Positions 8,312-25,850 of a stretch of DNA of 64,000 nucleotides are shown piece by piece. The stretch is taken from contig NZ_CP044016.1 of NCBI RefSeq assembly GCF_004337365.2, positions 620,001 through 684,000 on the forward strand, in the 5' to 3' direction. Under the pieces are notes generated by a model. It made no database searches, was not told the DNA's origin, and saw only the letters and a program-made list of their open reading frames with translations. Positions within the stretch are counted from its first letter, which is position 1, and every line of letters starts with the position of its first letter. Position numbers and translations under genes: made by a program. This stretch comes from Rhizosphaericola mali. Lineage in GTDB: Bacteria > Bacteroidota > Bacteroidia > Chitinophagales > Chitinophagaceae.

Positions 8312-9177
8312 TTATATTTTAGAAATTGAGATTTTATTACAAGAGTATTGTTCAGGGAAAACAGTATTTAATGAATGTGTAATTACTTCCAAACCTTTTT
8401 TTACATTATGAGCACTATAATTTAGTGATAATTTGAATAACTCAAGACTTTTATATAAGTCCAGAATATTAGGCGTATAATCATAAGACAGCATCCATTT
8501 GAGTCCCTTTCTTTTATTTAAATAATTTCTCAATAAAACATGATCATCATTTCTATAATAATTCAAGTATAAAGCTTTTCCTTGTATAAAATAAGGTGGG
8601 TCTAAGTAAACAAACAGATTTTTTAATTTCAATTGTTTCAAAAAATCTAAAGCATCATAATTTGTAATAGAAATAGCATCTCTAAAATTTCCAATTTTCT
8701 GTAATTTCTCGATTAATAAGTCTTTTTTAAATCGACAATCAATTTTATATTCTGCCACCTCCTGATTTTTAGGATCCTGCCCTCCAATTGGACCTGCACC
8801 TAATATTCCAGATCGATTGGTTCTTGATAGAAAGAATGTGGCGAAAGCCAATTCAAAACAGGGATGCTTGGTCGAAAAAAAGATTAACCTTTGCTTTTGC
8901 CATTCATCTAGAGTAACCTTAGTGTTATTAACAGTCTCAACAAATCTTGCATTTTCATTTGTAATATAATTCCAAAAAGAAAATATTCCCACACTTGCAT
9001 CATTGATAAATGCATGCTTTACTTTGCCTTCATATAATAATTTTAGTCCAGCACCAAATCCCCCGAATAAGGCTCGGCGTAAGCATAATTTTCCATTCCA
9101 TTTATAGACAATACTTCCTCTATAAATGGGGCTAAGAATTCTTTACCTCCGGGATATCTTAATGGCGAATATTTCAT
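8312..9177 (-). pseudogene. Dam-type DNA adenine methylase, frameshifted
   Basis: Read across both frames, this is a D12-class N6-adenine methyltransferase of about 288 residues, a normal length. The N-terminal 42 codons (from ATG at 9177) give the AdoMet-site motif RYPGGK and AEPYSG. One G is then missing from a run (C5 at 9060-9064 on the + strand), giving an early stop. In the other frame the protein continues as GGFGAGLKLLYEG, INDASVGIFSFWNYI and the catalytic DPPY motif (YLDPPYF). The remaining open frame begins at 8992. The ATG overlaps the stop of the upstream ATPase (ATGA), so the two are translationally coupled. Either a pseudogene, a phase-variable state or a sequencing error. Confidence 0.85.
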
Positions 9178-10721
9178 ATCAATTTATCAAAACCTATTTT
9201 CGCTGCGAATTTATTGTATATAACCTTATAGTGACTTTTAAAATTTTCAACATCTGGTGCATTCTCCAGCATCCAAGCATGTATGATTTTCTCCTTCCAT
9301 TTGGGTTGCTTACAGTTTTCTCTAAACCAATTTTTCGCAATATCTCTATCTCTAATTATGTCATTAATATCATGAGAGCTAAAGCACATTTGTTTCGTAT
9401 AATCACTATGTATTTTTGCCCAAATTGGATCAGCATCCATTTTTTCATTTAGAAATAATGCCAAAACCCGTTCTGGACTATTTCCTCCTGGTAGTGCCAA
9501 TGCGTTTGGCAAAGACTTAACATCAGTATCTCCGTCAACAATTATCAAAGCATTAGGGAATGTAAATGAGATTATTTTTCGTTTGGCTAAATCTATTAGC
9601 TGTTTACCACCTATGTTTGATTTGTCAATAGTAAAATGGCTTCTCCATTTTGCAGGAATTAATGTATTGATAAAGATTCTAGCTTCATCATCTTCAGTAA
9701 AAATATTTATTCTGTCCGGTGTAGCTTCAGGATCAATGGAAACCTTTAAGAAATTCTTTATTCGTAAAAAAGGTAAACCCTCACTTATATCTATCAGCCC
9801 ATCAATTTTTCGTAAATAAAGAATATTAATATCCTTGGAACTTGATTTGTTTTTTTCTTGATATTCACAAGCTATTTCTAAAATTGTTAACGAATGTGTT
9901 GTAAATATTAACTGAAATCCTAATTCTTGTGAAAATTTATTGAGAAAATCAAATAGCTTTATTTGTGAGCCTGGATAGATTGAGGCATCTAGCTCATCGA
10001 TTGCTAATATTCCTCCTTTATAAACTTTTGGATATTTTTTCTTGAGCCTTCTGAAAGACAAAACTGCCAACAAAATTTTACTAATGTCATCCTGACCAGC
10101 TGAGTTAGACTCCCAATCATAATTATCGGTATTGATGCCCATACTTACTTTACTTGGACTCAATAGCATCTCATTCTGTATTGACTCATCAGCACTGATC
10201 AAGATATTCTTATGCCACTTATTGAAAAATCTTAATTCCTCATCTGTCAAGGAATGATTAATGCTCGCTTTTATATTTTTTATCTCACCTAATGGAAACA
10301 ATCGTCCAAGGCTTAAATATATAACGGGATATTGCATATATCCGCTACCTTGCTCCCTATTTCCTTTTTGCCAAAATCGAATTAGCCCTTTTCTTTTATC
10401 TCTATTTATACTTTCGAGTTCAAATGGAAGATCACTTTTATTATAGAAATTTAATTTCCATAAATGTTCTCCTGCTTTATCAAATTTTTTTGACAATCTG
10501 AATTTTTCTATAAAAGAAGATCTATAACTCCCACCACATAGTGGTCTTTCATCCTTAAACTCAGGAATTTCAGTTATAGTAAATGGTTGAGTCATTAATC
10601 CAAGAAGAGTGGTTTTTTGCGTACCATTTTGTCCAGCTATTATAGTTATGTTCTTACCTAAGTCAAAATGAACATTTTGAAATCCTCTAAATTTTTCAAT
10701 CTCTACCGATTTTATAATCAT
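9174..10721 (-). CDS. OLD-like ABC-ATPase with TOPRIM domain
   Basis: 515 residues. The N-terminal ABC/SMC-type ATPase has a P-loop at G30-QNGTQ-K36-T (Gln replaces the usual Gly before Lys), an ABC signature-like SAGQDD, Walker B with LAIDELDASIYP and a switch His in TTHS. The C-terminal part has TOPRIM acidic residues: E343 in FTEDDEARIF and D396/D398 in ALIIVDGDTD. This ATPase-TOPRIM order is that of the OLD family of nucleases, which includes several phage-defence proteins. Its stop overlaps the start of the Dam-type methylase by ATGA, so the two form one operon. The inferred role is nucleic-acid cleavage in defence, with the methylase as the possible protecting partner. Confidence 0.8.
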   Translation of the reverse strand: MIIKSVEIEKFRGFQNVHFDLGKNITIIAGQNGTQKTTLLGLMTQPFTITEIPEFKDERPLCGGSYRSSFIEKFRLSKKFDKAGEHLWKLNFYNKSDLPFELESINRDKRKGLIRFWQKGNREQGSGYMQYPVIYLSLGRLFPLGEIKNIKASINHSLTDEELRFFNKWHKNILISADESIQNEMLLSPSKVSMGINTDNYDWESNSAGQDDISKILLAVLSFRRLKKKYPKVYKGGILAIDELDASIYPGSQIKLFDFLNKFSQELGFQLIFTTHSLTILEIACEYQEKNKSSSKDINILYLRKIDGLIDISEGLPFLRIKNFLKVSIDPEATPDRINIFTEDDEARIFINTLIPAKWRSHFTIDKSNIGGKQLIDLAKRKIISFTFPNALIIVDGDTDVKSLPNALALPGGNSPERVLALFLNEKMDADPIWAKIHSDYTKQMCFSSHDINDIIRDRDIAKNWFRENCKQPKWKEKIIHAWMLENAPDVENFKSHYKVIYNKFAAKIGFDKLI

Positions 10722-11288: not shown

Positions 11289-12332
11289 TTGCAAATGAAA
11301 ACAATATATATGATACTAAAAAAGGGAAAATTATTTGTGGTATTCTTTAGCTTTATAACCATTTTGAATTTACAAGGACAAACAATCAAGAGAATTAATC
11401 AATTTTATTATTCAGTACAAAAAGCGGATAGTCTCTATAAAAGTAAAAATTATATAGCGGCAGCGGATATTAATATTAGTGAATATTATTGGTTGAAGTC
11501 AATTGGACAACTAGAAAAAACTAATGAATTTTTTTCAGTACCATATGATGCACTATGCAATTTATCATTAGGGAATAAAAACGATTCGGCTTTTAAGTTA
11601 CTCAAGGAATTAATTCAATATGATAACTTTCCTTATATGTCTTCATTATTAACAGATAATGACCTTAATGATTTAAGAAAAGATAAGAAATGGAAAGAAA
11701 TTTATGGTTCCCAAATTGAAAATATAATAAATACCCAAAATCAAAAGATTAATAAACAATTGATTGGAAAACTTGATTCGATTCGGGAAAAGGACCAAAA
11801 ACCTAGGTTTCAATATATGGATACTATCAAAAAGTATGGTGTAAAATCAATACAGGCAAACTTTTTGGGCAAGCAAATTCTAAAGCAAGACTCATTAAAT
11901 CTAATTGCTTTATTATCACTGATAGATAGTAATGGTTGGCCTTCTAAGGTCGAGGTTGGAGAAAAGGGAGAGCAAACTATTTTTCTTGTTATTCAGCATG
12001 CCCCCCTTGATGTTCAAGAAAAGTATTTGCCTATTATGGAAAAAGCTGCATTTAATGGAGATATTAAAAAATCGCAATTAGCCTATTTACAAGATAGGGT
12101 ATTGTGGCGGAAAAGGTCACTACAACTTTATGGTTCACAGATAAAAATAGATGAACACGGAAAAGCATTGTATCCATTTCCTATGGAAGATCCATTGAAT
12201 GTTAATCTGCGTAGATTCAGTGTAGGGCTTTTTTCTATGGAAGAGTATATGTCAAAAAATGGGGGAGAATGGGACGCAAAAAATTATATAAAAATTCTTC
12301 CAGAGTTAATTGATAATCTAAAACGCAAATAA
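11289..12332 (+). CDS. DUF6624-like secreted protein
   Basis: 347 residues. A signal-peptide-like hydrophobic stretch (about 15-30, VVFFSFITILNLQGQ) is followed by a TPR-like helical region (ADSLYKSKNYIAAADI) and a C-terminal domain with DSNGWPSKVEVGEKGEQTIF, VIQHA and LAYLQDRVLWR. This C-terminal pattern is that of DUF6624, a Bacteroidota domain of unknown function. It stands 79 nt upstream of the RiPP precursor, on the same strand and with the same very AT-rich composition. It may be part of the cluster, but a biosynthetic role is not shown. Confidence 0.7.
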   Translation: MQMKTIYMILKKGKLFVVFFSFITILNLQGQTIKRINQFYYSVQKADSLYKSKNYIAAADINISEYYWLKSIGQLEKTNEFFSVPYDALCNLSLGNKNDSAFKLLKELIQYDNFPYMSSLLTDNDLNDLRKDKKWKEIYGSQIENIINTQNQKINKQLIGKLDSIREKDQKPRFQYMDTIKKYGVKSIQANFLGKQILKQDSLNLIALLSLIDSNGWPSKVEVGEKGEQTIFLVIQHAPLDVQEKYLPIMEKAAFNGDIKKSQLAYLQDRVLWRKRSLQLYGSQIKIDEHGKALYPFPMEDPLNVNLRRFSVGLFSMEEYMSKNGGEWDAKNYIKILPELIDNLKRK

Positions 12333-12411: not shown

Positions 12412-12600
12412 ATGAAAAAGCTAGAATTAAAAAAAGCCGAATTGGAAGCAATGTCTGAAAATGATTTAGACAAAATCATTGGTGGATCTAAACCTGTTTC
12501 TGGGAGTGATGACACTACAACTGTAACTGTGACTATAACGATTACTGTATCGTCAGTTGCAGAAGATAGTGATGATGATCCAGATCCAGACAGTGATTAG
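12412..12600 (+). CDS. gwsA: Grasp-with-spasm RiPP precursor peptide
   Basis: 62 residues. The leader (1-25) has the LxxxELEAMS..DLDKI pattern and ends in the double-glycine site I22-I-G24-G25, typical of Bacteroidota GG-leader peptides. The inferred core (26-62) has an alternating hydroxyl/aliphatic stretch TTTVTVTITITVSS (35-48) and then the acidic tail EDSDDDPDPDSD (51-62). Graspetide ligases join Ser/Thr/Lys side chains to Asp/Glu carboxylates; this core has 7 Thr and 2 Ser facing 8 acidic residues. The ATP-grasp and SPASM genes follow, and a C39 peptidase exporter that would cut after GG is encoded downstream. A good AAGGAG ribosome site precedes it. The symbol is by analogy. Confidence 0.88.
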   Translation: MKKLELKKAELEAMSENDLDKIIGGSKPVSGSDDTTTVTVTITITVSSVAEDSDDDPDPDSD

Positions 12601-12620
12601 TATCGCATTCTTTTCTAAAT

Positions 12621-12668
12621 GGAGGTTGTTATATTTAATTTTTTATTAATAAACAACCTCCTATTTTA
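12621..12668 (+). terminator. Hairpin between precursor and modification genes
   Basis: A perfect 10-bp stem (12621-12630 with 12652-12661, GGAGGTTGTT/AACAACCTCC) with an AT-rich loop, followed by TATTTTAATT. It lies 20 nt after the precursor stop. It is probably a leaky terminator or RNA-stabilising hairpin that keeps precursor mRNA in excess over enzyme mRNA, as in many RiPP operons. Confidence 0.65.
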
Positions 12669-12727
12669 ATTGAAGCAAAAAAAGAATTATTCTTAATTAT
12701 TCCTCTTAATTTAATCTTTACTATACT

Positions 12728-13732
12728 ATGATTTTAATATTGAGTCGAGTAACCGATCATTCATCAACATTAGTACTTGAGTGGTTAAAGTCGCTTAAAG
12801 AAGATGTTATTAGAATTAATGGTGATAAGCCAAATGATATGACCCTGCTATTCTGTAATCTAAATGAGAATAAAACTATTATAGAGCATTTGGGAAAGGA
12901 AATTAACTTATTGGATTTCAATAGTATATGGTACAGAAGAAGGCCACTTTCTATCGATAATTTTCTATTGAATAAAAATGATTCTCTAAATAAAAGAATT
13001 TTTTTTGACAATATGGATTATCAAAAGGGGCATATAAAAAAAGAAATAGATACTTTAATTAATTTTATTTATTACAAAATAAATAGTGCTGGAATGTTTG
13101 TTTTAGGAGATCCGAATAAAGGAAACTTGAATAAATTAGAAGTTTTAAATATGGCACAAAAAGTTGGATTGAAAATTCCACAGACTTATATAATCTCTCA
13201 AAAGGAACAATTGATAAAATTAATGGAAAATAACTCATCATTCATAACTAAAGCAATGAAAGATAGTGTCTATTTAATAACTAAGCAGTTTGGTTACTAT
13301 ACTTATACTGAGCGTATAACTTCTAGTTTAATCCATAAATTACCAGACTCTTTTCCGCCTTCATTAATACAGCAGGAAATAACAAAAAAATATGAAATAA
13401 GATCATTTTATTTAAATGGAAGATTTTACTCGATGGTAATATTCTCTCAGTCAAATAAAAAAACAGAGGTTGATTTCAGAAAATATAGTCATGAAAAAAT
13501 AAATCGTTATGTACCATTTAATTTACCTGATAAAATCGAAAAAAAATTATTAATTCTTATGAATGACGAATTGAAACTTAATACTGGAAGTATTGATATT
13601 ATAGTCGACAAAAATGATAATTATATTTTCTTAGAAGTTAATCCTGTTGGCCAGTTTACTATGACTTCACTTCCTTGTAACTATTTATTAGAAAAAAAAA
13701 TAGCTGAGTTATTATGTCAGAAACAAAATTGA
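12728..13732 (+). CDS. gwsG: Grasp-with-spasm ATP-grasp peptide ligase
   Basis: 334 residues with the layout of RiPP ATP-grasp ligases (graspetide synthetases). The N-terminal domain starts MILILSRVTDHSSTLVLEWL and has WYRRRP, a hallmark of this group. The central ATP-binding part includes FITKAMKDS and the C-terminal metal-binding residues are in TGSIDIIVDKND..FLEVNPVGQF (Asp, Glu and Asn ligands). It is expected to activate Asp/Glu side chains of the precursor as acyl phosphates and form ester or amide crosslinks with Thr/Ser. It follows the precursor; the next ORF overlaps its end by 19 nt. Confidence 0.88.
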   Translation: MILILSRVTDHSSTLVLEWLKSLKEDVIRINGDKPNDMTLLFCNLNENKTIIEHLGKEINLLDFNSIWYRRRPLSIDNFLLNKNDSLNKRIFFDNMDYQKGHIKKEIDTLINFIYYKINSAGMFVLGDPNKGNLNKLEVLNMAQKVGLKIPQTYIISQKEQLIKLMENNSSFITKAMKDSVYLITKQFGYYTYTERITSSLIHKLPDSFPPSLIQQEITKKYEIRSFYLNGRFYSMVIFSQSNKKTEVDFRKYSHEKINRYVPFNLPDKIEKKLLILMNDELKLNTGSIDIIVDKNDNYIFLEVNPVGQFTMTSLPCNYLLEKKIAELLCQKQN

Positions 13733-13935
13733 ATAAATTAGAAATTGATGAGTGCCAACTCGCCACTTTGCCATTATTTTATCGAAATATTATATATAAT
13801 GAATTAACTCAACTTAGTAGTCCCTTAGATTTATCCAAATATATAGAAGATTGGAACAGTTATATATATTATGAATCTTCAGAAAATCCGATTTCGAAAA
13901 TTATTGACTATTCTATCGAAAAATTTGAAAAGTAA
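13714..13935 (+). CDS. Small unknown protein of the RiPP operon
   Basis: 73 residues, acidic and Tyr/Ile-rich, with no signal or membrane segment. Its ATG lies within the end of the ATP-grasp gene (19-nt overlap), which suggests translational coupling, and the SPASM gene begins 20 nt after its stop. No family was recognised. It could be a second small partner of the ligase or of the SPASM protein; it lacks a GG leader and so is not an obvious second precursor. Confidence 0.65.
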   Translation: MSETKLNKLEIDECQLATLPLFYRNIIYNELTQLSSPLDLSKYIEDWNSYIYYESSENPISKIIDYSIEKFEK

Positions 13936-13955
13936 AAAATTTTAAATATTATTTT

Positions 13956-14993
13956 ATGATTGAAAATTCATTATTAGCAAAATACATATATATATATTCT
14001 GATTGTTTCTTGGTTAGAGGTGCCAATCGAAGTCTTATTTATGATATAAGTAAGAGAAAAATGATTTTTATTGATAATCAATTGTATAATATATTAAAAT
14101 TGGCAAGGGAATATACAATTGGAGAAATTCTTGAAATGTTTACTGAAAAAGAAGATATAAATAATTTTGAAAAAATATTGAAAGATCTTATCAATACCAA
14201 CCTCTGTGAACTAGTTGAGGACATAAAGTTATTTCCTCCTATTGAGATTGCTTGGGAGCATCCCTCTATTATACAAAATGCAATAATAGATATACGAAAT
14301 ACCATTCATGATTTTGAAGATATTTTCAATGAATTGGACGAATTAGGGTGCTATCATATACAAATACGCATTTTTAGTCGTACAATTACTATTGCAGAGA
14401 TTCAAAATCTAATCTTGAATAAGACTAAGAATAAAAAATTTAGAAGCATTAATTTAACTCTTCCATTTGATAAACATATTGAAATAAGTGAATTAAGAGA
14501 ATTAGTTATAAAATTTCCATTTATACAAATTAATATATATGATTCAAAAGAATCGGGGTCTGTTCCTAATTGTAATAGTAGAATAATATTCGTGAAACAA
14601 AACATTCAATCATGTAATAATTGTGGAATTATAAATTTGGAATCATTGAATTTTCCTTCTATTCAAGGGTTGATGCATAATATATTATTTAATGGTTGCT
14701 TAAATAGGAAAATTTCTATAGATGAGAATGGCAATATCAAGAATTGTCCTTCTATGAATAAAGATTATGGTAAATATGGAGAATCTACATTTAAGGATAT
14801 ATTGCTAAAAGAAAGTTTTAATAACTTTAAAAAATATTGGTATATAAATAAAGATGAAATTGAAATTTGCAAAGACTGTGAATTTAGATATTTATGTTCA
14901 GATTGTAGGGCCTATACTGCTGATTCAAAAAATATACTTTCTAAACCAGAAAAATGTAAGTATAATCCATATACATCAACATGGGAAAAATAA
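13956..14993 (+). CDS. gwsS: Grasp-with-spasm SPASM-domain peptide maturase
   Basis: 345 residues. The C-terminal SPASM-like region has Cys at 248, 264, 305, 308, 314, 317 and 334 (NGCLNRK, IKNCPS, CKDCEFRYLCSDC), suited to auxiliary iron-sulfur clusters. The N-terminal part has no CxxxCxxC radical-SAM motif; only a CNNC pair is seen. This matches the SPASM partner that always accompanies the ATP-grasp enzyme in grasp-with-spasm systems, whose exact role is unknown. The early part (LIYDISKRKMIFIDNQLY) may be a precursor-recognition region. Confidence 0.85.
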   Translation: MIENSLLAKYIYIYSDCFLVRGANRSLIYDISKRKMIFIDNQLYNILKLAREYTIGEILEMFTEKEDINNFEKILKDLINTNLCELVEDIKLFPPIEIAWEHPSIIQNAIIDIRNTIHDFEDIFNELDELGCYHIQIRIFSRTITIAEIQNLILNKTKNKKFRSINLTLPFDKHIEISELRELVIKFPFIQINIYDSKESGSVPNCNSRIIFVKQNIQSCNNCGIINLESLNFPSIQGLMHNILFNGCLNRKISIDENGNIKNCPSMNKDYGKYGESTFKDILLKESFNNFKKYWYINKDEIEICKDCEFRYLCSDCRAYTADSKNILSKPEKCKYNPYTSTWEK

Positions 14994-21951: not shown

Positions 21952-22935
21952 TTATCTACGAATACCACGCTTTCTCTTGAGTTTTTTGAGTTTTTCCTCT
22001 TCCGTTTCGGAAAGGGAAATAGAACCACCATAAAAGTCTTCTGCTTGCATTGTCTTACCGATATGGTTTAACAATGTCTCTATGATATTAAAAGATGAGA
22101 GTTCTTGGCTCTTCGTAGTATTACCATTGGAGGGAGAGGACATTTTTTGCTGGTAAATGCTGTCCATCCGAAAAGCTGGATTTTCATACTGTTTTTCCTG
22201 GATCTTGTTAAAGGCAATAATCTTTTCTATTTTCTGAAGACTCAGTCCTAAATCACTCGCTTTGTAGTAAATACCGGTCTTGTCTTCCACAATACCCAGT
22301 CCTCTTCCTTTTCTTAAGGAATAACCTACCCCATTCATTTTTGCTACAAACTCCAACATTGACTTTGTTCCAATGAGGGCCTTTCCCAAATCCTGTCTGG
22401 CCTTTTCAAATCTTGCATTGTTTCTCAAGCGCTGCTTTGGGTCAATCCCAATTTTCGGTGTTTCAACTTGTTTGAGTCCAAATTCCAATTCGCATGATCT
22501 TGCAATTTCCATCAAACGTATTTTGGATTTAAACATATTAGGTGTGGCCTTGCCATCAATAGGAGGTAGGCAAACGATAAAGTGGTAGTGGTCTTTATTC
22601 TCAGAAGAAGCGTGTTTCACGCCCAACACAATGCTATTCTCCAATTTAAATTCCTTGACCAGTTTTTCAGCTAAAGCAAGTTCCTGATCCTTGGTCAGTC
22701 TTTCGTTTTCTGCGAGGCTAAATATTGCGTGGAACATAGGGGATTGACATTTGCCTTTGTTGAGTTCCATTGCCATCTTCATTTGCTCTTTTATTTCAGC
22801 ATGGGAACCGTAGCATCCGTTTTGGACAACGATGTTTGCTTTTTCGTCCGGGTGTTTCAGTCCTTTTTCCCGTAGGGCATAGTCCACCATTCTGGGACAC
22901 GACCCTGCCGAACCCCTTGTTTGCTTTGCTATCAT
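21952..22935 (-). CDS. Relaxase/mobilization nuclease
   Basis: 327 residues from the ATG at 22935, which overlaps the stop of the MobC-like gene (ATGA) and is therefore preferred over an upstream start at 23034. The N-terminus IAKQTRGSAGSCPRMVDYALREKG is that of Bacteroidota MobA/VirD2-type relaxases. The metal-binding HUH motif appears as KDHYHFIVCLPP. The C-terminal half is helical and charged. The enzyme nicks the transfer origin and pilots single-stranded DNA during conjugative mobilization. It appears intact although the element's integrase is lost. Confidence 0.88.
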   Translation of the reverse strand: MIAKQTRGSAGSCPRMVDYALREKGLKHPDEKANIVVQNGCYGSHAEIKEQMKMAMELNKGKCQSPMFHAIFSLAENERLTKDQELALAEKLVKEFKLENSIVLGVKHASSENKDHYHFIVCLPPIDGKATPNMFKSKIRLMEIARSCELEFGLKQVETPKIGIDPKQRLRNNARFEKARQDLGKALIGTKSMLEFVAKMNGVGYSLRKGRGLGIVEDKTGIYYKASDLGLSLQKIEKIIAFNKIQEKQYENPAFRMDSIYQQKMSSPSNGNTTKSQELSSFNIIETLLNHIGKTMQAEDFYGGSISLSETEEEKLKKLKRKRGIRR

Positions 22936-23258
22936 TGTAATGCATTTTTGATTTCGTTCGCCAGTTGGTACAGTCTGTTTGCGTAAAAATGAAGTTCTGA
23001 TTCGGCTATGTTTTTGAGTCGGTCCGAATGGCAATACCTTGTGAACTGGTTAAAATTGTTGGCACTTTGTAGCATGGCCAATACAGTTTTGTTAACCGAT
23101 GCCGGAATCGTTTTTTTGTAAAGTTTGATCTCCACGTTACGTGCAGAGGCGATCAAAAAATCGGAAACCGTCATCTCGCATTTGGCGGCTTTTTGTTTTA
23201 TGATGGCTTTTTCTATGGTGGTAGCACGGAGATATATCCTAGTTGTTTTATTTTTCAT
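22932..23258 (-). CDS. MobC-like relaxosome accessory protein
   Basis: 108 residues from the ATG at 23258 (a longer in-frame start exists at 23306). The N-terminal ribbon-helix-helix-like part, TRIYLRATTIEKAIIKQKA..MTVSDFLIASAR, is typical of MobC/MbpB DNA-binding accessory proteins that load the relaxase at oriT. Its stop overlaps the relaxase start. A transfer origin would be expected in the 110 nt upstream (23260-23370), but no specific motif was recognised there. Confidence 0.82.
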   Translation of the reverse strand: MKNKTTRIYLRATTIEKAIIKQKAAKCEMTVSDFLIASARNVEIKLYKKTIPASVNKTVLAMLQSANNFNQFTRYCHSDRLKNIAESELHFYANRLYQLANEIKNALQ

Positions 23259-23373
23259 TTTTATAAAATTTTGGATGAATAAATACGAATGCAAAGCATG
23301 AGGCATTTTATTTTGGCCGGCTGCGTACGTACCAGCCTCCTGCTTGCCTATACGATTAATTTTAAAGGTCGTG

Positions 23374-24285
23374 TTACAACGACCGTCCTCTGTTCCTTTT
23401 TTGTCCCTTATTGTATTTCAGGAAATCGTTCAAGTCTTTACCGTCCTTCATTTGGTATTTAGGAGATAAATCAATGAATTTGGAGTCGGATTCTATTAGA
23501 TTTTTTGTTTTGATTCTCCCTGGAAAATCAAGATCCAGTGCAAGAAAAACTTTGTTATGTTCAAGCATTTTGGGAATGGATCTGTCCAGATTACTAAGGG
23601 AATGAAGTACCAAATAATTGACTTTTTCGAAACAGATTTTGTCTCCCAATTTAACCGCAGAAAGAAGGTCAAACATACCCTCGACGACTAAAACTTTGTC
23701 GAAACCTTCATCAAAGAAAGTAAAGTCTTTATGTCCAATACAGGATTTGAAATTTCCGTTTTTGCCTCTCACCTCCCAACTCCCAGAATTGTTTTTCATA
23801 CCCAGAACAATCTGCTTTTTGTGAAAAATTCTGTGTTCAATTTCCAATTCACGCAGATATTTTTGGGCAATCTCGATTGGAATTCCTCTTTCGCTCGAAA
23901 CATAAGACAACAGTTCTTTATCCGCTAAATCACTTTCCCTGTTGATTAGAAAACTTGGATTGGCTGCTATATCAACGTTGATGATTGAGGTATTGGGCTG
24001 CTCCATTGGAGCAGTAATTCCAAATATTTGTTCCAATTTTTTGGAGGCATCTATTAAGCTGCAGTTGTCTAGATTCATCACCAAATCAATTACAGAACCA
24101 CATCTTTTTTCGTCTCCATAGTCAATAAACAGATTGTCACGGATGGACACTTTCACGCTAGCTGTATTTTCTGCTCTCCAAGGAGCGAAGTAAAATAGTG
24201 CATCTCCACTACGTCTAGCAATGGGATGACCGTATTTTTCCATGATGGAAGGGATAGGCGTTCTTTTAATTTCTTGGAAATTCAT
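23374..24285 (-). CDS. Primase-like CHC2/TOPRIM protein
   Basis: 303 residues. The N-terminal part resembles a CHC2-type zinc-binding primase domain (FYFAPWRAENTASVKVSIRDNLFIDYGDEKRCGSVIDLVM). The C-terminal half is a TOPRIM domain with the Glu in VLVVEGMFDLLSA and the acidic pair in FLALDLDFPGR. Such small primases are standard in Bacteroidota mobilizable elements, where they prime replication of the transferred strand. It lies between the MobC gene and the iteron-like field. Confidence 0.85.
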   Translation of the reverse strand: MNFQEIKRTPIPSIMEKYGHPIARRSGDALFYFAPWRAENTASVKVSIRDNLFIDYGDEKRCGSVIDLVMNLDNCSLIDASKKLEQIFGITAPMEQPNTSIINVDIAANPSFLINRESDLADKELLSYVSSERGIPIEIAQKYLRELEIEHRIFHKKQIVLGMKNNSGSWEVRGKNGNFKSCIGHKDFTFFDEGFDKVLVVEGMFDLLSAVKLGDKICFEKVNYLVLHSLSNLDRSIPKMLEHNKVFLALDLDFPGRIKTKNLIESDSKFIDLSPKYQMKDGKDLNDFLKYNKGQKRNRGRSL

Positions 24286-24317
24286 TATTAATGATTTTTA
24301 AAATTATAAATACTGGA

Positions 24318-24467
24318 TAAGTAAGTTACTTGTGCCTACTTGCTTACTTGAAATCGCTGATAAGTAACCATAAGTAAGCAATAAGTAAGCTTAAGTAAGC
24401 AATGCTTACTTATTGTAAATAACTGTAATTGAATAGGTTATAGCAGTGAAAAGAGAAATAAGTAAGC
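24318..24467. repeat. Iteron-like field of TAAGTAAGC repeats
   Basis: The 9-mer TAAGTAAGC occurs four times in direct orientation (24371-24379, 24382-24390, 24392-24400, 24459-24467) and once inverted (24404-24412). Near copies lie at 24318-24325, 24361-24368 and, inverted, 24342-24349. The three central copies are spaced 10-11 nt apart, about one helical turn. It fills the gap between the primase-like and VapE-like genes and is a plausible replication origin (iterons) or operator array of the element. Confidence 0.75.
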
Positions 24468-24478
24468 ATTTTTTATTT

Positions 24479-25630
24479 TCACCGTCTAAATTTTAAATAA
24501 TATGCCTTGATCGGGTAGCCTTTTTCCTCAGAATAGCGGTTGTCCTTGGTGAACCCAAGTACTTTTAACGCCTTCCCCAATTGCTGGGTGCTAATGGTAA
24601 TTCCTACATTGTTGGTTTCCCGGATGCCAATTTCGATTTCTGTTGTGGATCGAAAAAGATCGTGATCTTCCTTAGTTCCCACTTCATACAAATTCATGAT
24701 TAGTTCCATTTCCTTTGTGATGACTGTAAAGGACTGGTTTGCTAATTCATTTTCTTTGATTTCATCTGCGGTTAGATCACAAGGATAACCAGATAGATAA
24801 AGATTGTAGGCTTGTTTCCAAACGAAATCAATATTAATCTCCTTGGAATAGGCAAAATCAATATCCAAAACTTCAAAAGGAATCCATCGAACATTACCTG
24901 TCTCATCGGTGAGAAATTCGGTTCGGTTTGTACTGCCAATAAAAGATGCTCTTCTCGGAATTTTCTTTGCCTTTCTTTCAAAAGGATGACGTTCTTTTAC
25001 AAAAGCTTTTGATAAGATTGCCTTTAACATATTGATTTCCAATTTATTAAATGAAGCTAACTCATCAAGATTGATGATGTAATTCTCACAGAGCGCAATC
25101 ATACTATCTTTATCAAACGAGATATTCTCGGCGGAATAACTTTTGAGCAATGAAGGAATGAGAAATCTGCAAAACGTCGTCTTACCTCCATTTTGCTTTT
25201 CTTGCACCAATATCAAAGCGTTCTTGTTGACATAGTCATCTTCCAATGCACATTTTACTGTTCGAACCAGCCATTTTTTTAAATGTCTTCTAAATCTCCT
25301 GTTGGCAGTTGTTTTTACATAAGATGCTAACTGATCGATATAATCGAAGTCGTGATCAAATCCGATTAATTGCATCTTGAAGTAATCTAGAAAAGCATTG
25401 AAAGATGGAACAAAGTCCGATTTTAGAATATTAATCAGATCATTCATAGAAGCTTTTACACTTTGTAACTTCAATTGGCGCAAAACATTGAACTCGTTTA
25501 GTTCTTCCCATTGTTCCAATTCTGAATGTCTGAATTCAATGATGCCATTAATGATGTTGCATCGGAATTGGTAGTTTTCCAATAGAAACTGTTCCAATCT
25601 TTCATAAGAGGTCATTCTTTCATTATCCAT
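24479..25630 (-). CDS. VapE-like P-loop helicase/primase protein
   Basis: 383 residues from the ATG at 25630, which overlaps the end of the HTH gene by 8 nt; an upstream start at 25654 is possible. The central P-loop NTPase has Walker A in VQEKQNGGKTTFCRFLIP and Walker B-like IINLDELASF, with an arginine-rich segment RHPFERKAKKIPRRASFIGSTNRTEFL. This is the virulence-associated E (VapE) superfamily-3-type helicase domain. In mobile elements it drives unwinding at the element's origin. The position next to the iteron-like field fits that role. Confidence 0.85.
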   Translation of the reverse strand: MDNERMTSYERLEQFLLENYQFRCNIINGIIEFRHSELEQWEELNEFNVLRQLKLQSVKASMNDLINILKSDFVPSFNAFLDYFKMQLIGFDHDFDYIDQLASYVKTTANRRFRRHLKKWLVRTVKCALEDDYVNKNALILVQEKQNGGKTTFCRFLIPSLLKSYSAENISFDKDSMIALCENYIINLDELASFNKLEINMLKAILSKAFVKERHPFERKAKKIPRRASFIGSTNRTEFLTDETGNVRWIPFEVLDIDFAYSKEINIDFVWKQAYNLYLSGYPCDLTADEIKENELANQSFTVITKEMELIMNLYEVGTKEDHDLFRSTTEIEIGIRETNNVGITISTQQLGKALKVLGFTKDNRYSEEKGYPIKAYYLKFRR

Positions 25631-25850
25631 TTTCCACCTCCTTTTTGCCACCATTCAGAAAGGTTTCAACGGCTTCCACTGTGTAACGAATGAATCTTCT
25701 TCTTGCCCTATTTTTGTTTAGATTGTCTCCCCAATCAATAGGCTTTAACACTCCCGCTTTTTCAAGTTTTTGGACTTGTGTTTTTGATACCTTTAGGATA
25801 ATTGCCACCTCTTTAGCGGTATAGGTGGTCATGTTGTCATGTAACTTCAT
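25623..25850 (-). CDS. Helix-turn-helix protein, excisionase-like
   Basis: 75 residues (a start at the internal MTTYT is also possible). The N-terminal winged-HTH segment TYTAKEVAIILKVSKTQVQKLEKAGVLKPI is that of MerR/excisionase-like DNA-binding domains common in Bacteroidota mobile elements. It is the first gene of the operon leading into the VapE-like and primase genes, and its end overlaps the VapE-like start. Confidence 0.8.
   Translation of the reverse strand: MKLHDNMTTYTAKEVAIILKVSKTQVQKLEKAGVLKPIDWGDNLNKNRARRRFIRYTVEAVETFLNGGKKEVENG

What the first reader, a model, noticed from the sequence alone, without database searches (positions are those of the whole stretch)
12412..14993. Graspetide-like cluster with a threonine-ladder core and acidic tail
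The precursor at 12412-12600 has a GG leader and a core in which TTTVTVTITITVSS (7 Thr, 2 Ser) is followed by EDSDDDPDPDSD (8 acidic residues). The ATP-grasp ligase and SPASM partner directly follow. Known graspetide ligases join Thr/Ser to Asp/Glu; a ladder of up to 7-9 donors facing 8 carboxylates would give a densely crosslinked hairpin, which I do not recall as a described graspetide pattern. Connectivity and number of crosslinks are inference.
Basis: partly seen in the sequence, partly recalled or inferred. Interest (0 to 1): 0.78.

Follow-up and report, generated by a model that had tools for sequence, protein, structure and literature searches.

The report
Zipper-like crosslinked peptide gene cluster
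A bacterium carries genes for a small peptide whose two halves look built to be stitched together rung by rung like a zipper, and related bacteria carry versions with fewer or more rungs, which makes the predicted stitching easy to test.

Summary
Window 12412-12600 encodes a 62-aa GG-leader precursor. Its core has Ser/Thr at seven alternate positions (T35-S47) and Asp at six (D52-D62); an antiparallel hairpin (i+j=99) pairs six on one face. Ligase and partner pass the NCBIfam cut-offs of the 'grasp-with-spasm' graspetide system, so the class is known. The ladder is a family trait: the six other ligases of its clade (45-49% identical; Deminuibacter, three Kordia, Pontibacter, a Mucilaginibacter MAG; SH-aLRT 95) sit beside precursors with other letters (Ser/Glu, Thr/Glu) and runs of 3-7. 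Donor and acceptor run lengths rise together (r=0.79, n=9). Among 5,962 small ORFs held, mostly from loci fetched around such ligases, 11 distinct ones carry a 4+4 ladder, each in a locus holding such a ligase. The SPASM partner lacks the radical-SAM CxxxCxxC motif, as do 78 of 78 relatives; its model has an N-terminal leader-binding (RRE) domain. Nested graspetides with 2-4 links, and one with five esters of unresolved connectivity, are published, so this is a longer variant. No chemistry was shown; AlphaFold did not predict the hairpin.

The parts
12412..12600 (+). precursor peptide: leader M1-G25; core S26-D62 with alternate donors T35,T37,T39,T41,T43,T45,S47 and alternate acceptors D52,D54,D56,D58,D60,D62
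12621..12661 (+). RNA hairpin between precursor and ligase genes, perhaps a partial terminator or stabiliser that lets precursor outnumber enzymes (role inferred)
   Evidence: 12601-12680: z -5.65, 0 of 200 shuffles as stable; the consensus terminator scan, limited to loops of 3-8, listed none
12728..13732 (+). ATP-grasp graspetide synthetase (TIGR04192)
   Evidence: 337.8 bits, cut-off 230; CdnC 7mgv E 3.6e-23
13714..13935 (+). LPL-family small protein (ATLPLFYRN), overlaps the ligase end
   Evidence: family described in PMC8939145
13956..14993 (+). SPASM-domain partner (TIGR04193): RRE (residues about 9-88), radical-SAM-like body without CxxxCxxC, SPASM cysteines
   Evidence: 327.4 bits, cut-off 175
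11289..12332 (+). DUF6624 protein upstream; a DUF6624 gene also lies just after the partner gene in L072 and L073
15391..17769 (+). outer-membrane beta-barrel (OMP_b-brl_3), possible export or uptake partner (inferred)
   Evidence: a gene of the same Pfam family (23% identity) at the same place in Pontibacter L075
18057..20273 (+). C39 peptidase-containing ABC transporter: expected to cut after GG and export (inferred from family)
   Evidence: 39% and 41% identical to the transporters in L075 and L072
20287..20886 (+). 199-aa protein directly after the transporter, no Pfam match at E<=1e-4; possible short membrane-fusion accessory (inferred)

Best explanation
It is a grasp-with-spasm graspetide cluster whose core is a multi-rung zipper. 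The RRE of the SPASM partner (perhaps with the LPL protein) binds the leader and presents the core to the ATP-grasp ligase. The core folds as an antiparallel hairpin with alternate Ser/Thr of strand 1 facing alternate Asp of strand 2 (i+j=99: S47-D52, T45-D54, T43-D56, T41-D58, T39-D60, T37-D62). The ligase phosphorylates each carboxylate in turn and the facing hydroxyl attacks, giving up to six nested omega-esters (-108 Da), probably zipping from the turn outwards as reported for amycolimiditide. The C39 transporter then cuts after GG and exports the stapled hairpin. Shown: sequence pattern, gene families, ladder precursors throughout the ligase's clade, co-variation of run lengths, absence of the radical-SAM motif, RRE fold of the predicted model. 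Inferred: ester chemistry, number, pairing and order of links, and the roles of partner and LPL protein.
For: Ligase and partner over curated cut-offs; ligase related to CdnC and other solved graspetide ligases. Ladder-type precursors beside 7 of 7 ligases of one clade spanning four NCBI families. Letters differ (Thr/Asp, Ser/Glu, Thr/Glu) but alternation stays; Deminuibacter has 7 donors and 7 acceptors with the same 4-residue turn. Donor and acceptor run lengths correlate (15 peptides r=0.73, p=0.002; 9 distinct r=0.79, p=0.011; relatedness not removed). 11 of 5,962 small ORFs carry a 4+4 ladder, each in a locus with such a ligase, nine in the clade and two outside. In four Kordia-Kordia precursor pairs the two runs are unchanged but for one terminal acceptor, with 28 silent codon changes among 110 shared core residues. 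Published nested esters make it plausible.
Against: No mass data. AlphaFold2 of the precursor (10 sequences) gave pLDDT 65 and no strand in the core. The gap between the runs is not constant in the clade (4-10 residues), and 6 of 15 precursors have an acceptor run of only three. Two registers (sums 97 and 99) both give six same-face pairs in the window core. Prolines 57 and 59 in strand 2 would disturb a regular sheet. I labelled the loci 'ladder' after reading the precursors, and two ligases of similar identity outside the clade (L076, L077; 44-45%) have ordinary 2-rung precursors.
Confidence: 0.6

Rival explanations
1. Ordinary graspetide with few links: the ligase installs two or three esters near the turn, and the extra Thr/Asp are a flexible or redundant substrate tract (register slips, mixed products).
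For: Other precursors beside related ligases mostly show one or two alternate pairs (86 of 99 candidates scored 1-2); the fuscimiditide ligase can make non-native links; the gap between runs varies in the clade.
Against: Donor and acceptor runs lengthen together and keep strict alternation over 11-13 residues in the window and Deminuibacter cores in different letters; the runs are kept between paired Kordia precursors but for one terminal acceptor.
Confidence: 0.27
2. The alternating Thr strand and acidic tail are not the crosslinking sites: the peptide acts as a self-assembling beta strand or a metal-binding acidic tail, with another modification.
For: Asp-rich tails bind metals in many proteins (general knowledge, recalled); SPASM proteins are linked to other chemistries (PMC8939145).
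Against: Graspetide ligases use Ser/Thr/Lys and Asp/Glu; the window core has no Cys for thioethers; the partner lacks CxxxCxxC, so radical chemistry is unlikely.
Confidence: 0.08
3. The 62-aa ORF is not the substrate; the true precursor lies elsewhere.
For: Branch-5 loci often hold several unlike precursors (PMC8939145).
Against: In the locus held around the ligase (L001/L002) it was the only upstream small ORF that passed my GG filter; it has the same place and leader motif as in the related loci.
Confidence: 0.05

Closest known systems
Grasp-with-spasm graspetides (TIGR04192/TIGR04193; 'branch 5' of Makarova 2022; probably group 14 of the RODEO survey, my inference)
   Same: Precursor, ligase, LPL small protein and SPASM partner in the order described.
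   Different: The precursor is under the cut-off of TIGR04149 and reached no NCBIfam or Pfam cut-off; the core is a 6-rung ladder, where most candidates show 1-2 pairs.
PF14406 Bacteroid_pep
   Same: The Kordia algicida ladder precursor is a member (44 bits, cut-off 25), so one cousin is already in Pfam.
   Different: The window, Deminuibacter, Pontibacter and Mucilaginibacter precursors did not match it; Kordia L074a is just under the cut-off (23.8).
Amycolimiditide, fuscimiditide, SsfA (group 13 graspimiditides) and OEP6-1
   Same: Nested esters on a stem; strict loop-first order in amycolimiditide.
   Different: 2-4 nested links (SsfA: five esters, connectivity unresolved) against 6-7 predicted; 10-aa loops in fuscimiditide and amycolimiditide against a 4-aa turn in the preferred register here; methyltransferase in group 13, SPASM partner and LPL protein here.
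Rosaritide (MirA/B/C)
   Same: Acceptors at alternate positions D22, D24, D26 and a partner protein needed by the ligase.
   Different: Three interlocking lactones; partner is a PPIase-like protein.
TigE, CteB, SuiB, PqqE (SPASM radical SAM enzymes) and the RRE protein TbiB1
   Same: Fold of the partner's body (Z 10.4-11.9, rmsd 5.0-7.3 A) and of its N-terminal domain (TbiB1 Z 9.7, rmsd 2.4 A over 80 residues).
   Different: The partner lacks the radical-SAM cysteine motif.

Membership tests
Grasp-with-spasm system | ATP-grasp over TIGR04192 cut-off | tested here: met
   337.8 bits against 230
Grasp-with-spasm system | SPASM partner over TIGR04193 cut-off | tested here: met
   327.4 bits against 175
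Grasp-with-spasm system | LPL or similar small protein directly upstream of the SPASM gene | tested here: met
   73-aa ORF with LPL motif ending 20 nt before the SPASM gene
Grasp-with-spasm system | GG-leader precursor upstream of the ligase | tested here: met
Grasp-with-spasm system | associated 'cluster 23' protein | tested here: inconclusive
   a DUF6624 gene is present; that cluster 23 equals DUF6624 is my guess
TIGR04149 rSAM-modified RiPP precursor | score over cut-off | tested here: not met
   15.9 bits against 25
PF14406 Bacteroid_pep | score over cut-off | tested here: not met
   no match listed for the window precursor at E<=1; Kordia L073 matches with 44 bits
Graspetide (chemical class) | side-chain ester or amide crosslinks | not testable with these tools
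   needs mass spectrometry
Graspetide (chemical class) | ligase homologous to known graspetide synthetases | tested here: met
   CdnC 7mgv E 3.6e-23, 5ig9 E 2.1e-21; K175, R225, D290, E303, N305 invariant in 68 aligned ligases (catalytic roles recalled, not tested)
Group 13 graspimiditide | isoaspartyl-type methyltransferase in the cluster | tested here: not met
   none among the 7 ORFs scanned at 11.3-20.3 kb; not sought elsewhere in the genome
Radical SAM peptide maturase | CxxxCxxC motif in the partner | tested here: not met
   absent from residues 71-200 of the window protein and residues 61-210 of 78 of 78 relatives
Radical SAM peptide maturase | SPASM cysteines | tested here: met
   C305, C308, C314, C334 invariant in 69 aligned proteins; motif found in 77 of 78 relatives
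RRE-containing protein | PqqD-like winged helix | tested here: met
   predicted model only: TbiB1 (88 residues) Z 9.7, 80 residues aligned, rmsd 2.4 A

The most novel reading that the evidence does not exclude
A clade of 'zipper' graspetides of adjustable length (about 3 to 7 nested rungs, Thr/Asp, Ser/Glu or Thr/Glu), whose ligase stitches a beta-hairpin processively, and which depends on a former radical SAM enzyme that has lost its radical chemistry and survives as an RRE-bearing, iron-sulphur presenting partner.
Probability: 0.4. Interest if true: 0.72.

Novelty: new variant of a known kind. Interest (0 to 1): 0.52.

Why it matters
If true, it gives the longest nested-ester graspetide stem that I know of and a natural series with about 3 to 7 rungs, so one ligase clade could show how a graspetide synthetase counts, orders and stops crosslinks. 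It would also assign a non-radical role (leader presentation) to a SPASM protein family usually described as radical SAM maturases. Stapled hairpins of chosen length are of use in peptide design.

Tried and rejected
Tried with no result: first genome-contig scan with the single ligase (77 pattern hits, no relative); search of 395 genomes with the Deminuibacter precursor letters (best E 0.0254, 15 genomes at E<=0.1, hits not inspected); solved-structure search with the core (0 hits at E<=10) and with the partner (0 hits at E<=0.1); AlphaFold2 of the precursor (no strand in the core, pLDDT 65); a ladder-specific insert in the ligase (none clean; a Y-[HQ]-K-x-H motif is shared by the 5 ladder ligases of the 68-row alignment); TRF on the ladder DNA (no repeat).

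Considered and rejected: DNA slippage as origin of the ladder (mixed codons); thioether formation by the partner (no Cys in the window core, no CxxxCxxC).

Limits of the counts: the 5,962 ORFs are not a random genome sample; 228 come from the window, 212 from L152-L167 and 261 from L057-L071, nearly all the rest from loci fetched around such ligases or their partners, with overlapping loci counted twice. One of the 11 ladder ORFs (L175) lies 44 nt upstream of its ligase but has no GG/AG before the ladder. In one search the pairs with L073 are misaligned in the leader by a gap and are not used; the four pairs that I use also differ in 19 of 129 core residues. The correlation ignores relatedness.

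Rows dropped: of 80 ligases in L072-L151, two (L092, L148) were left out of the tree because the frame held a stop; L078 is cut by its contig end. Two loci (L078, L103) had no partner hit, so 78 were examined. LPL counts depend on the filter (40 of 78, 47). In one search not every match was fetched as a locus, so 'two ladder loci in the family sample' would be a lower bound and is not used. The genome search scored at most 5 candidates a genome.

Not in print, as far as searched: (open-licence PMC papers only).
Full report
WHAT IS THERE. The window lies in a 4.7-Mb genome. It is in the same family as Deminuibacter soli, i.e. Chitinophagaceae: G100 is 'same family' and its contig has the length of the Deminuibacter contig. 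At 12412-12600 is a 62-aa ORF with GG at 24-25 and the core SKPVSGSDDTTTVTVTITITVSSVAEDSDDDPDPDSD. Donors stand at alternate positions T35, T37, T39, T41, T43, T45, S47; acids at D52, D54, D56, D58, D60, D62. Over antiparallel registers with i+j from 90 to 107, sum 99 is best with seven pairs, six on one face and S48-E51 at the turn; sum 97 gives six.

NEIGHBOURS. 127 nt downstream, past a stable RNA hairpin (z -5.65), is the ATP-grasp ligase (TIGR04192, 337.8 bits, cut-off 230). A 73-aa LPL protein overlaps its end, then comes the SPASM partner (TIGR04193, 327.4 bits, cut-off 175). Further on are an outer-membrane beta-barrel and a C39-peptidase ABC transporter, in the same order as in the Pontibacter ladder locus. 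Upstream is a DUF6624 gene; a DUF6624 gene also lies directly after the partner gene in Deminuibacter L072 and Kordia L073. At E<=0.001 the window ligase has one match in its genome, itself.

THE LADDER IS A FAMILY TRAIT. I fetched the 80 best of 488 related ligases in GTDB genomes and read the small ORFs with GG-like motifs upstream. Ladder precursors stand beside Deminuibacter (SLSASASASASFSWGYTETDIEIEVEGEVEV), Kordia algicida (DTATATATASFNSSAEAEAEAESAE), an uncultured Kordia with four precursors, a third Kordia (found) with five, Pontibacter (ISLTISSAVTEAKEDSDSD and a sister) and a Mucilaginibacter MAG. Of 99 candidate precursors scored, 86 had one or two rungs, 6 three, 5 four, and one each six (window) and seven (Deminuibacter). 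One of the fours (L135 Fluviicola) and three of the threes (L093, L117, L148) lie outside the clade. In an ML tree of 81 ligases the seven ladder loci form one clade (SH-aLRT 95, no bootstrap; 0 of 500 label shuffles as clustered). Caveats: I assigned the label after reading the precursors; Pontibacter and Mucilaginibacter reach only three rungs; and two ligases of similar identity, L076 and L077 (44-45%), fall outside the clade with 2-rung precursors.

TESTS AGAINST CHANCE. Shuffling each core 20,000 times and asking for both runs at once: window 0, Deminuibacter 0, Kordia algicida 13, Kordia L074d 0, Pontibacter 517, Mucilaginibacter 813. Donor-run and acceptor-run lengths correlate: r=0.73 for 15 precursors, r=0.79 (p=0.011) for nine distinct ones; relatedness is not removed. 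In all sequence held (209 sequences, 1.59 Mb, overlaps counted; 5,962 ORFs of 30-150 aa) only 11 distinct ORFs have at least four alternate Ser/Thr followed within 2-12 residues by at least four alternate Asp/Glu. Each lies in a locus holding such a ligase. Nine are in the clade. The other two are L135 and L175, the latter 44 nt upstream of its ligase and without a GG/AG motif before the ladder; they hint at repeated origin. Since most of this sequence was fetched around such ligases, the count shows specificity within the loci, not genome-wide. Ladder codons are mixed and no tandem repeat is found. In four Kordia-Kordia precursor pairs the runs stay the same but for one terminal acceptor, with 28 silent codon changes among 110 shared core residues and 19 replacements, outside the runs otherwise.

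RARITY. A profile of five ladder ligases scored 402-597 bits in the ladder loci of five genomes and 551 in the window; the best of the other 394 genomes in a class sample was 312 bits. At E<=1e-90 it was found in 3 of 11 Kordia genomes, 1 of 50 in the Pontibacter genus and 1 of 149 in the Mucilaginibacter genus, each count including the genome already known. In the window's genus the window ligase matched 1 of 2 genomes at E<=1e-30, the window's own.

THE PARTNER. PMC8939145 (sections 5 and 7, two of three parts of section 6, and passages) describes it as a radical SAM enzyme of the SPASM family. In 78 of 78 relatives with a partner next to the ligase no CxxxCxxC or CxxCxxC occurs in residues 61-210, while 77 keep a SPASM cysteine motif. 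AlphaFold2 with 69 sequences gave pLDDT 94.2. Residues 9-88 match the RRE of TbiB1 (Z 9.7, rmsd 2.4 A over 80 residues), and the body (about 100-340) matches TigE, CteB, SuiB and PqqE (Z 10.4-11.9, rmsd 5.0-7.3 A). So it most likely binds the leader and does not do radical chemistry; the second half is inference from absence of the motif.

MECHANISM. Graspetide synthetases phosphorylate Asp/Glu and let Ser/Thr/Lys attack (PMC13097080, parts 1 and 2 of 6 and passages). The ligase is related to CdnC and other solved ligases of this kind. In amycolimiditide four esters are installed strictly from the loop down the stem (PMC13003496, passages). The simplest reading is the same zipper with six rungs here and seven in Deminuibacter. 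Against it: no chemistry was measured, AlphaFold2 put no strand in the core of the free precursor, the gap between the runs varies (4-10), 6 of 15 precursors have an acceptor run of only three, and two prolines sit in strand 2.

PRIOR WORK. Nested stem-loop graspetides with three (OEP6-1), two (fuscimiditide) and four (amycolimiditide) links are described (PMC12291112, passages), and SsfA has five esters whose connectivity could not be determined (PMC10787088, passages; PMC13001092, passages). [quoted passage not shown] no characterised member of that group was named in the parts that I read. Eleven graspetide clusters were refactored in PMC9576775; the passages I saw name products of groups 2, 7, 8, 19 and an unnumbered group, not 14. 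The Kordia algicida precursor is already a member of PF14406. Hence: new variant of a known kind.

Noticed in passing
L074 and L208 upstream of the ligase: Two Kordia genomes carry four and five neighbouring ladder-type precursors with different cores but one leader type, a small natural library for one ligase.
   Followed up: partly
L135 (1041 nt upstream of the ligase) and L175: Two precursors outside the ladder clade also have 4+4 or 4+5 alternate ladders, suggesting convergence.
   Followed up: partly
window 8312-9177 (-): A D12-class adenine methyltransferase appears split over two frames (226-aa piece with the Pfam match; a 44-aa piece with a PLRYPGGK start, whose link to the family is recalled), beside an AAA ATPase gene at 9174-10721.
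   Followed up: no
window 21952-25654 (-): Relaxase, Toprim/DnaG-zinc-ribbon and VapE-like genes: probably a mobilisable element next to the cluster.
   Followed up: no
window 12621-12661: Strong RNA hairpin between precursor and ligase genes, not listed by the consensus terminator scan.
   Followed up: partly
L072 10346-13158: The Deminuibacter ladder locus also holds a glycosyltransferase-like and a LanC-like protein.
   Followed up: no
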